A stretch of 53,425 nucleotides of DNA from Candidatus Peribacteraceae bacterium (GTDB taxonomy: Bacteria; Patescibacteriota; Gracilibacteria; Peribacterales; Peribacteraceae), in NCBI GenBank assembly GCA_028711445.1, contig JAQTSD010000006.1, positions 1-53,425 of the forward strand, read 5' to 3'. This document shows, piece by piece, positions 38,966 to 48,836 of the stretch. A program made the position numbers and the translations under genes. The notes beneath the pieces are model-generated. The model saw nothing but the letters and a program-made list of their open reading frames with translations, made no database searches and was not told the DNA's origin. The first letter of the stretch is position 1. Every line of letters starts with the position of its first letter.

Positions 38966-40162
38966 TCAGTCTTGTGTCTCGATTTTCGCAAGAAGGACTT
39001 CGATCTTTGTGAGATCCTCTTGGAGACGCTGCAGATTCACCTCGACGGTGTCCCTTCTGCCGATCTCAAAATCCACGGTTTCCGGAAGCTTTCCGGGAAG
39101 GGAGTCGATGGCATTCATATCGATGCCATGGGATGCGAGGATCGAACAGATCTCCTCTAAGAGGCCCCTTCTGTCATGCAGTGCGGTCAGCCGCAGAGAG
39201 CGCTTCCGGATGTTCGCGAGGCGGACGACGATGGTCGTCGTTTTGGCCTCCATGCGTTTCCGCCACTGCCGTGTCGGGTCCAATTTTTCGCGCGCAGCTT
39301 CGATGAATGCGGGGAGCCGCCGCTGCGCCGCGGGACGGTGGATGTCGTGCGTCGCCAGGTCCAGGATGTGCTGCAACTGCGCAATCGTTCGCTTTAGATC
39401 GCTCAATCCTTCGGGGGAGGAGGCCATGCTCGTGATGAGGTCCGCCTGCAGCGGGGCGGGGAGCGTGGCCCCGCGGCCGACGGAGAGCATGAAGAGTTCG
39501 AAATTCGGGGAGCCGATCCTCTCCAAACTCTCTACTGTTCCCGTCTCCGGCAAGCCCTCACCCATCGCCGCACAGGCTCCCACTTGCAGGAAATGGGGTT
39601 TGCTTTGTATCTGATGCATCATGCGGTCGTGCTCTTCGAGGCGCATCTTGTGGATGAACATTTGTTGCTGCGTGAACAGTGCCACGCACAGATCCTCGGC
39701 ATCCCGCGACCGTTCGCTGATCGTGCAGACGATGCCGTTCTGACCGCGCCAGGAAGGGATTTCCGGAGGGGGTTTTGCCATCGCATGAATCGCCCCCGCC
39801 TGAGCCGATCCCGATGCATCGATGCTGCGCAAGAGATCGACGTAGTCACGCTTCGAAGAGCCGGTATCGATGATGATCTGTCGCTCTTGGAGCTGTGCAC
39901 GGACGTGGAGGAGTACGCCTCGGATTTCCGGGAGATCGGTTGCGATGAAAATGATCGCCGCCTTTTCCGTAAGTTCCGGGAGCGGGATGTGTGGAAAATC
40001 AGGCTCTCTTTTTGCGCGGCCGGGATCCGATTGCATGATCGGATGCGGCGTATGCGGTTGCAGCGTGCGTACGAGATGGCTGCCGCACCTGCCGACGCCG
40101 ATGACGCCTATGGGTTTGTCGCCGATGATGTGAGCGAGCGTTCGCTCGGATGAGTGTTCCAT
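38966..40162 (-). CDS. tyrA: Prephenate dehydrogenase (TyrA-like) with C-terminal ACT domain
   Basis: PIGVIGVGRCGSHLVRTLQPH; TGSSKRDYVDLL; GAIHAMAKPPPEIPSWRGQNGIVC; ACT-like RSLRLTALHDRRGLLEEICSILASHGIDMNAIDS. Start at 40162 or upstream. Confidence 0.8.
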   Translation of the reverse strand: MEHSSERTLAHIIGDKPIGVIGVGRCGSHLVRTLQPHTPHPIMQSDPGRAKREPDFPHIPLPELTEKAAIIFIATDLPEIRGVLLHVRAQLQERQIIIDTGSSKRDYVDLLRSIDASGSAQAGAIHAMAKPPPEIPSWRGQNGIVCTISERSRDAEDLCVALFTQQQMFIHKMRLEEHDRMMHQIQSKPHFLQVGACAAMGEGLPETGTVESLERIGSPNFELFMLSVGRGATLPAPLQADLITSMASSPEGLSDLKRTIAQLQHILDLATHDIHRPAAQRRLPAFIEAAREKLDPTRQWRKRMEAKTTTIVVRLANIRKRSLRLTALHDRRGLLEEICSILASHGIDMNAIDSLPGKLPETVDFEIGRRDTVEVNLQRLQEDLTKIEVLLAKIETQD

Positions 40163-40279
40163 AATGAAGTCGAAGGAAGGGGGTGGGAAGTTCCTCGGGT
40201 CGATAGCGCAGTCCAGCCGCATCACTGACGAGTTCGTAGTACGAGAGCGGGCCGAGGATGAGAAATGCATTGCACATAC

Positions 40280-40305
40280 AAAAAACCCCGCGGATGCGAG
40301 GGGTT
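40280..40305 (-). terminator. Attenuator terminator in tyrA leader
   Basis: Minus strand AACCCC TCGCATCCGC GGGGTT TTTT. Confidence 0.8.
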
Positions 40306-40329
40306 GAAAACAGGTTCAGAAACAACCGC

Positions 40330-40389
40330 TCACATCCGCATGCAGCAGTTGCCGTAATAGTGTTGATCCTTGAAATGCGAGGTACGCAT
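40330..40389 (-). CDS. Leader peptide MRTSHFKDQHYYGNCCMRM with tandem Tyr codons
   Basis: 19-codon ORF directly upstream of the attenuator; Tyr codons at 40354-40359; stop within the antiterminator segment. Confidence 0.75.
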   Translation of the reverse strand: MRTSHFKDQHYYGNCCMRM

Positions 40390-40447
40390 GACGGGAAAAG
40401 TATACCCTGAGCGTTTCGGAAGGGGCAAGGTTTCCTTTTGTGAAAAA

Positions 40448-40475
40448 TGGCTCGGCGTGCTGGACGGGATTCGAA
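40448..40475 (-). repeat. tRNA-3'-end-like repeat T0
   Basis: Minus strand TTCGAATCCCGTCCAGCACGCCGAGCCA. Confidence 0.85.
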
Positions 40476-40525
40476 CGAGCGTTGTGATAACCGGCACGTG
40501 AACCCTACCCACTTCTGCTGTGAAG

Positions 40526-48761: not shown

Positions 48762-48836
48762 TGGCTCCCCGGGCTGGATTCGAACCAGCAACCAATCGGT
48801 TAACAGCCGATTGCTCTACCATTGAGCTACCGGGGA
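48762..48836 (-). tRNA. tRNA-Asn (GTT), CCA encoded
   Basis: TCCCCGGTAGCTCAATGGTAGAGCAATCGGCTGTTAACCGATTGGTTGCTGGTTCGAATCCAGCCCGGGGAGCCA folds as a full cloverleaf. Confidence 0.97.

What the first reader, a model, noticed from the sequence alone, without database searches (positions are those of the whole stretch)
40280..40389. Tyrosine-codon transcription attenuator upstream of prephenate dehydrogenase
Minus strand: 19-aa leader MRTSHFKDQHYYGNCCMRM with tandem Tyr codons (40354-40359), antiterminator segment GCGGATGTGAG (40329-40339) that pairs over 11 nt (one G.U) with CTCGCATCCGC (40290-40300), and that latter segment is also the loop/stem of a terminator AACCCC...GGGGTTTTTT (40280-40305). 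The leader stop codon lies inside the antiterminator segment, so a completing ribosome would block it. Downstream gene is TyrA-like. This is a complete classical attenuation layout with Tyr as the likely sensed amino acid.
Basis: partly seen in the sequence, partly recalled or inferred. Interest (0 to 1): 0.68.

Follow-up and report, generated by a model that had tools for sequence, protein, structure and literature searches.

The report
Tyrosine-sensing attenuator before tyrA
In an uncultured ultrasmall bacterium (Candidatus Peribacteria), the gene for a tyrosine-making enzyme is preceded by a tiny decoy gene with two tyrosine codons and a stop-transcription switch, so the enzyme is probably made only when tyrosine runs short; the trick is classical, but I found no earlier report of it in this group and it is very rarely known for tyrosine.

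Summary
The window is a Candidatus Peribacteria genome. Upstream of a divergent tyrA lies a promoter, a 19-codon leader ORF starting only 9 nt after the -10 box (so probably leaderless), tandem Tyr codons, an 11-bp antiterminator containing the leader stop codon, and an intrinsic terminator. Decisive evidence: five tyrA loci (the window and four relatives, TyrA 93, 56, 56 and 29% identical) all keep Tyr-Tyr, hairpin and terminator, although the leader peptides differ almost everywhere else and the most distant has entirely different stems. In the same lineage prephenate dehydratase has Phe-rich leaders, trpE has Trp-Trp leaders and hisG is preceded by His codon runs, so the sensed codon follows the gene. 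Three of 380 phylum genomes match the stem pattern, all at tyrA. A second conserved Tyr-Tyr ORF follows the terminator; its role is open. Verdict: a new member of a known kind (classical ribosome-mediated attenuation), in a phylum where I found no earlier report. No experiment exists.

The parts
40399..40428 (-). sigma-70-like promoter TTGCCC-18-TATACT; the -10 box ends 9 nt before the leader ATG
   Evidence: conserved in G001, and all five tyrA and three pheA leaders of the family have the -10 box 7-10 nt before the start codon
40330..40389 (-). leader ORF MRTSHFKDQHYYGNCCMRM*, no Shine-Dalgarno, probably leaderless
   Evidence: all five tyrA loci have a 19-25 aa leader ORF with YY
40354..40359 (-). 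tandem Tyr codons TAT TAC (the sensor)
   Evidence: invariant Tyr-Tyr in all five tyrA leaders with TAT/TAC exchanges
40322..40352 (-). 1:2 hairpin that starts one base after the Tyr codons and sequesters the antiterminator segment
   Evidence: -15.7 kcal/mol; an equivalent hairpin folds in all five tyrA loci
40329..40339 (-). antiterminator 5' arm (segment 2) GCGGATGTGAG, contains the leader stop TGA
40290..40300 (-). segment 3 CTCGCATCCGC, pairs with segment 2 (antiterminator) or forms part of the terminator
   Evidence: 2:3 helix about -25.7 kcal/mol
40280..40305 (-). intrinsic terminator AACCCC...GGGGTTTTTT
   Evidence: one A-U stem pair is G-C in G037
39999..40277 (-). second ORF (uORF2, MCNAFLILGPLSYYELVSDAAGLRYR...) starting just after the terminator, with conserved Tyr-Tyr; overlaps the tyrA start out of frame
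   Evidence: TACTACGA(A/G)CTC invariant and frame conserved in four loci; modest synonymous excess in this frame in the closest pairs; 35 aa and non-overlapping in G037; absent in G051
38966..40162 (-). tyrA: prephenate dehydrogenase-like protein with a possible ACT domain (398 aa)
   Evidence: sub-threshold NCBIfam prephenate dehydrogenase hits, Pfam PDH_N above cut-off in the G024 and G051 homologues, best PDB hits are prephenate dehydrogenases

Best explanation
This is a classical ribosome-mediated transcription attenuator that lets Tyr-tRNA supply control tyrA. Transcription starts within a few bases of the leader ATG and a ribosome begins on the near-leaderless transcript. If charged Tyr-tRNA is plentiful the ribosome reaches the TGA, covers segment 2, segment 3 folds into the terminator and transcription stops before tyrA. 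If charged Tyr-tRNA is scarce the ribosome stalls at TAT TAC, its leading edge opens segment 1, freed segment 2 pairs with segment 3, the terminator cannot form and tyrA is transcribed. Without translation the 1:2 hairpin forms first and termination results. Shown here: sequence elements, conservation, compatible folds, codon-gene matching in relatives. Inferred: transcription start, termination, stalling and Tyr response.
For: Exact layout. Five tyrA leaders with YY: G000 MRTSHFKDQHYYGNCCMRM, G001 MRTSHFKDQHYYGNCCTWM, G024 MKKSCCIIISSYYTRSTRM, G037 MKSLPRHQCASYYTRSTRM, G051 VFLMHLISGAYYTVPSSEERTATVA. G051 uses unrelated stem sequences (UGAGGAG:CUCCUCA) in the same geometry. Folding the RNA 3' of a ribosome stalled at Tyr gives 2:3 in four of five; folding 3' of a ribosome at the stop gives the terminator (or, in G001, its core) in five of five. 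Same-lineage leaders match their genes: Phe before prephenate dehydratase (own genome MSARTFAFGFTSFSFSAGKEPMCLS; G037; G016), Trp-Trp before trpE, His runs before hisG. Stem pattern specific to tyrA in 380 genomes. Chance control.
Against: No RNA or expression data; start site and termination are predicted. In G037 the lowest-energy fold after a Tyr stall keeps a local hairpin plus terminator rather than 2:3. The core 9 bp of 2:3 are invariant in the four closest genomes, so covariation rests on few changes and on the G051 replacement. In G051 the leader stop lies beyond the antiterminator arm rather than inside it. The window leader also has Cys-Cys codons, though these are not kept in place in relatives. 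More distant TyrA homologues (G034, G047, G012, G028) showed no such leader. The tyrA assignment in the window itself is below family cut-offs. Completeness of the pathway is unclear: no chorismate synthase was found.
Confidence: 0.9

Rival explanations
1. The terminator simply ends an upstream transcript or a short RNA, and the short ORF and the complementarity are incidental.
For: An intrinsic terminator alone is common between genes.
Against: Upstream genes differ between the window and G001 (TspO versus tRNA-Asn) while promoter, leader and terminator are kept. Tyr-Tyr and alternative helices are kept in five loci, including one with unrelated stems. No shuffle reproduced the combination.
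Confidence: 0.04
2. Termination is controlled by an uncharged-tRNA T-box or a ligand riboswitch rather than by leader translation.
For: Tyrosine genes in other bacteria are T-box controlled (PMC1262725).
Against: No Rfam family matches the region; the leader is only about 110 nt; the conserved feature is a translated frame with Tyr-Tyr, while the RNA sequence is not conserved in G051.
Confidence: 0.02
3. A leader-peptide attenuator that senses something else, such as cysteine (tandem Cys codons) or general translation slow-down, rather than Tyr.
For: Window and G001 have Cys-Cys two codons after Tyr-Tyr; uORF attenuators that sense general translation stress are known (e.g. PMC12121999).
Against: Only Tyr-Tyr is conserved in place; G037 has a single Cys and G051 none. 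Other pathway genes in the lineage have matching Phe, Trp and His leaders.
Confidence: 0.04

Closest known systems
E. coli trpL and pheL (pheA) transcription attenuators
   Same: Leader peptide with codons of the product amino acid, alternative 1:2, 2:3 and 3:4 helices and an intrinsic terminator (general knowledge and PMC11802643).
   Different: Tyr rather than Trp or Phe; no Shine-Dalgarno before the leader ORF and a start 9 nt after the -10 box; different phylum; no sequence homology claimed.
Corynebacterium glutamicum AroR leader (aroF)
   Same: Aromatic leader peptide with Phe-Tyr-Phe in a ribosome-mediated attenuator (PMC11802643, citing Neshat et al. 2014).
   Different: There Phe, not Tyr, limitation is reported to act; here the only repeated codons conserved are Tyr and the gene is tyrA.
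Leaderless short-ORF attenuators of Actinobacteria (for example cysteine leaders of mycobacteria)
   Same: Leader ORFs translated from transcripts with little or no 5' UTR (general knowledge; Cys leader ORFs are described in PMC1262725).
   Different: Those Cys cases lack an obvious intrinsic terminator (PMC1262725); here there is a clear one.
Tyr T-box leaders of Firmicutes
   Same: Control Tyr genes by charged Tyr-tRNA supply.
   Different: Direct tRNA binding, no leader peptide; no T-box match here.

Membership tests
Classical ribosome-mediated transcription attenuator | Short leader ORF rich in, or with tandem, codons of the cognate amino acid | tested here: met
   YY in five of five tyrA leaders; matching codons at pheA, trpE and hisG
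Classical ribosome-mediated transcription attenuator | Intrinsic terminator between leader and gene | tested here: met
   present in five of five
Classical ribosome-mediated transcription attenuator | Mutually exclusive antiterminator positioned so that a stalled or a completing ribosome chooses the fold | tested here: met
   the G037 stall fold is ambiguous
Classical ribosome-mediated transcription attenuator | Regulated gene belongs to the pathway of the sensed amino acid | tested here: met
   prephenate dehydrogenase-like by NCBIfam (sub-threshold), Pfam in homologues, and PDB
Classical ribosome-mediated transcription attenuator | Read-through rises on starvation for the cognate amino acid and depends on leader translation | not testable with these tools
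   needs reporter or in vitro assay
T-box riboswitch | Match to the T-box covariance model | tested here: not met
   Rfam scan of the window gives only tRNA-Asn
Leaderless leader ORF | Transcript begins at or within a few bases of the start codon | tested here: inconclusive
   -10 box 7-10 nt before the start in five tyrA and three family pheA leaders and no SD-like motif, but no mapped transcript ends

The most novel reading that the evidence does not exclude
tyrA is controlled by two Tyr-sensing leader ORFs in series: the leaderless attenuator ORF before the terminator, and a second conserved Tyr-Tyr ORF after it that overlaps or abuts the tyrA start and adds translational control; and this belongs to a lineage-wide use of leader-peptide attenuation for Tyr, Phe, Trp and His in Patescibacteria, including a His leader encoded by the tail of the HisR-like repressor gene itself.
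Probability: 0.3. Interest if true: 0.75.

Novelty: new member of a known kind. Interest (0 to 1): 0.55.

Why it matters
Gene regulation in Patescibacteria is almost unexplored (PMC11665869), and leader-peptide attenuation had been documented in Proteobacteria, Actinobacteria and some Firmicutes (PMC2965389, PMC9413887). A coherent set of Tyr, Phe, Trp and His leaders here would show that these reduced, host-dependent bacteria still meter amino-acid enzymes by tRNA charging, and would extend attenuation to a deep-branching lineage. A Tyr-specific classical attenuator is itself unusual: the closest aromatic leader, AroR, is reported not to respond to Tyr (PMC11802643). It also gives a cheap way to identify amino-acid genes in these genomes.

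Tried and rejected
Rfam scan for T-box or known leaders: nothing but tRNA-Asn. Nucleotide pattern search beyond the close relatives: three hits only, so distant members have to be found through the gene. TyrA homologues of about 30% identity or less in G034, G047, G012, G028: no leader by eye. Prephenate dehydratase genes of ten family loci: no leader directly upstream except in G016, most lying inside operons. TyrS/TrpS genes in the five tyrA-leader genomes: no YY or WW leader. MAFFT alignment of the five leaders misaligns G051, so no covariance model was built. Pairing of the region after uORF2's Tyr codons with segment 3 was considered and set aside: changes in G001 that are synonymous in the uORF2 frame break it. 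The AlphaFold model of TyrA is of moderate quality (pLDDT 68), so its fold match is supporting only. The genome-contig scan gave one relative, the G001 contig.

Full report
Observation. The leader ORF runs from ATG 40389 to TGA 40332-40330 and encodes MRTSHFKDQHYYGNCCMRM. Its Tyr codons are 40359-40354. GCGGATGTGAG (40339-40329) is complementary to CTCGCATCCGC (40300-40290) over 11 nt with one G.U, and the terminator AACCCC...GGGGTTTTTT occupies 40305-40280. A sigma-70-like promoter, TTGCCC-18-TATACT, ends 9 nt before the ATG. The scan of the window returns only this site; 30 shuffles gave none with an antiterminator of nine or more pairs.

Directly after the Tyr codons lies a strong hairpin (40352-40322, -15.7 kcal/mol) between segment 1 (GCAACTGCTGCAT) and a stretch that includes most of segment 2. 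With it the layout is a full three-way switch: 1:2, 2:3 and 3:4. A ribosome held at the Tyr codons covers the outer part of segment 1; a ribosome at the stop codon covers segment 2. Folding the RNA downstream of each ribosome position gives 2:3 (antiterminator) after a Tyr stall and the terminator after completion. The ribosome footprint (15 nt from the P site) is an assumption taken from general knowledge.

Relatives. The window lies in a 1.25 Mb Candidatus Peribacteria genome; the nearest named record is UBA11694. Of 353 genomes of the class searched with a TyrA profile, five (the window's included) carry this type of tyrA with its upstream region; a sixth (G033) is cut by a contig end. All five have a leader with Tyr-Tyr and a terminator. 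Between the window, G024 and G037 the peptides differ apart from YY and the end of the ORF, where the RNA constraint lies. In G051 (TyrA 29% identical) the peptide and every stem sequence are different, yet Tyr-Tyr, the 1:2 hairpin, a 2:3 helix and the terminator recur in the same order. That replacement is the best evidence that the alternative pairing, not a primary sequence, is selected. A stem pattern from the close relatives hit 3 of 380 phylum genomes, all at tyrA.

Codon matches gene. In the same family the leaders of other genes carry the expected codons: prephenate dehydratase in the own genome (MSARTFAFGFTSFSFSAGKEPMCLS), in G037 (MSRQTFIFGTFQFSYFMEGKELMRLSY) and in G016 (MTTQIFSFGFSFFPFSAGKKPMRLK); trpE in eight genomes with Trp-Trp followed by a terminator, for example MHQYNTPRRLGWWQALTQSAVR; hisG with His runs. 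Outside the family, a fused tyrA-pheA gene in G070 has MKTIRSFIQAFFFYFFWASAEKVPVM and a prephenate dehydratase in G642 has ...NYWFYYYYFYRSW.... This gene-to-codon agreement is hard to explain by anything but attenuation.

Probable leaderless start. In all five tyrA and three family pheA leaders the -10 box ends 7-10 nt before the start codon, and no SD-like motif is present. If transcription starts at the usual distance, the leader ORFs are leaderless or nearly so. This is inferred, not mapped.

The gene. The window protein scores below family cut-offs (NCBIfam prephenate dehydrogenase 3.7e-12; Pfam PDH_N 0.0021), but its G024 and G051 homologues pass the PDH_N cut-off, and both profile search and fold search put prephenate dehydrogenases first in the PDB. 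The likely start is ATG 40162. The genome also has prephenate dehydratase but no detectable chorismate synthase or shikimate dehydrogenase, so how prephenate is supplied is unknown.

Second Tyr-Tyr ORF. Immediately after the terminator T-run an ATG (40277) opens a frame whose 'YYEL' is invariant in four loci. The frame shows more synonymous changes than the other two in the closest pairs, and G001 changes that are synonymous there break a possible RNA pairing, which favours translation. In the window, G001 and G024 it overlaps the tyrA start out of frame; in G037 it ends before it; G051 lacks it. It may add a translational layer; this is a hypothesis.

Comparison with what is known. It works like E. 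coli trpL or pheL. Membership as a classical attenuator is met on every feature testable by sequence; the response to starvation is untested. I found no open-access report of leader-peptide attenuation in Patescibacteria nor of a Tyr-specific one, with the limit that most subscription papers are not in the library. PMC2965389 stated in 2010 that leader-peptide systems were known only from Proteobacteria and Actinobacteria before its own Firmicutes case; PMC1262725 lists Tyr genes as T-box controlled; PMC11802643 reports that Tyr availability does not affect the operon behind the AroR leader.

Verdict. The finding is real, correctly interpreted, and part of a larger pattern in this lineage for which I found no report. 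It is a new member of a known kind.

Noticed in passing
L149:907-1400 (own genome G000), also L151, L154, L157, L152, L156, L153: The gene upstream of hisG encodes a YerC/TrpR-family (HisR-like) repressor whose C-terminal tail holds a His codon run (e.g. KHGHHSHARERG, NHHHTTH), followed by a terminator with a possible antiterminator: the repressor gene's own 3' end may serve as the His leader of hisG. G048 (L150) has a stand-alone His leader instead. (family identity checked for L149 and L157 only).
   Followed up: partly
L058:1281-1420 (own genome) and L059, L131: Phe-codon leader with terminator upstream of prephenate dehydratase.
   Followed up: yes
L090, L091, L092, L093, L096, L097, L098, L101 upstream of trpE: Trp-Trp leader ORFs with terminators; a recurring GTACC.TTGTACCG just before the leader start looks like an operator (TrpR-like) near the promoter.
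   Followed up: partly
window 39999-40277 (-): Second conserved Tyr-Tyr ORF between terminator and tyrA, overlapping the tyrA start out of frame.
   Followed up: partly
window 48762-48836 and 40442-40485: In G001 tRNA-Asn sits directly upstream of the tyrA leader; in the window the tRNA-Asn lies 8 kb away, and a tRNA 3'-end-like remnant (GTTCGAATCC...GAGCCAT) sits next to the leader, as if an island (helicase-like gene, TspO and others) had integrated at the tRNA.
   Followed up: partly
whole genomes G000, G001, G024, G037, G051: tyrA is present in all five (with prephenate dehydratase in G000 and G037), but chorismate synthase is not detectable in any of them although the search rings in all 14 control genomes.
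   Followed up: partly
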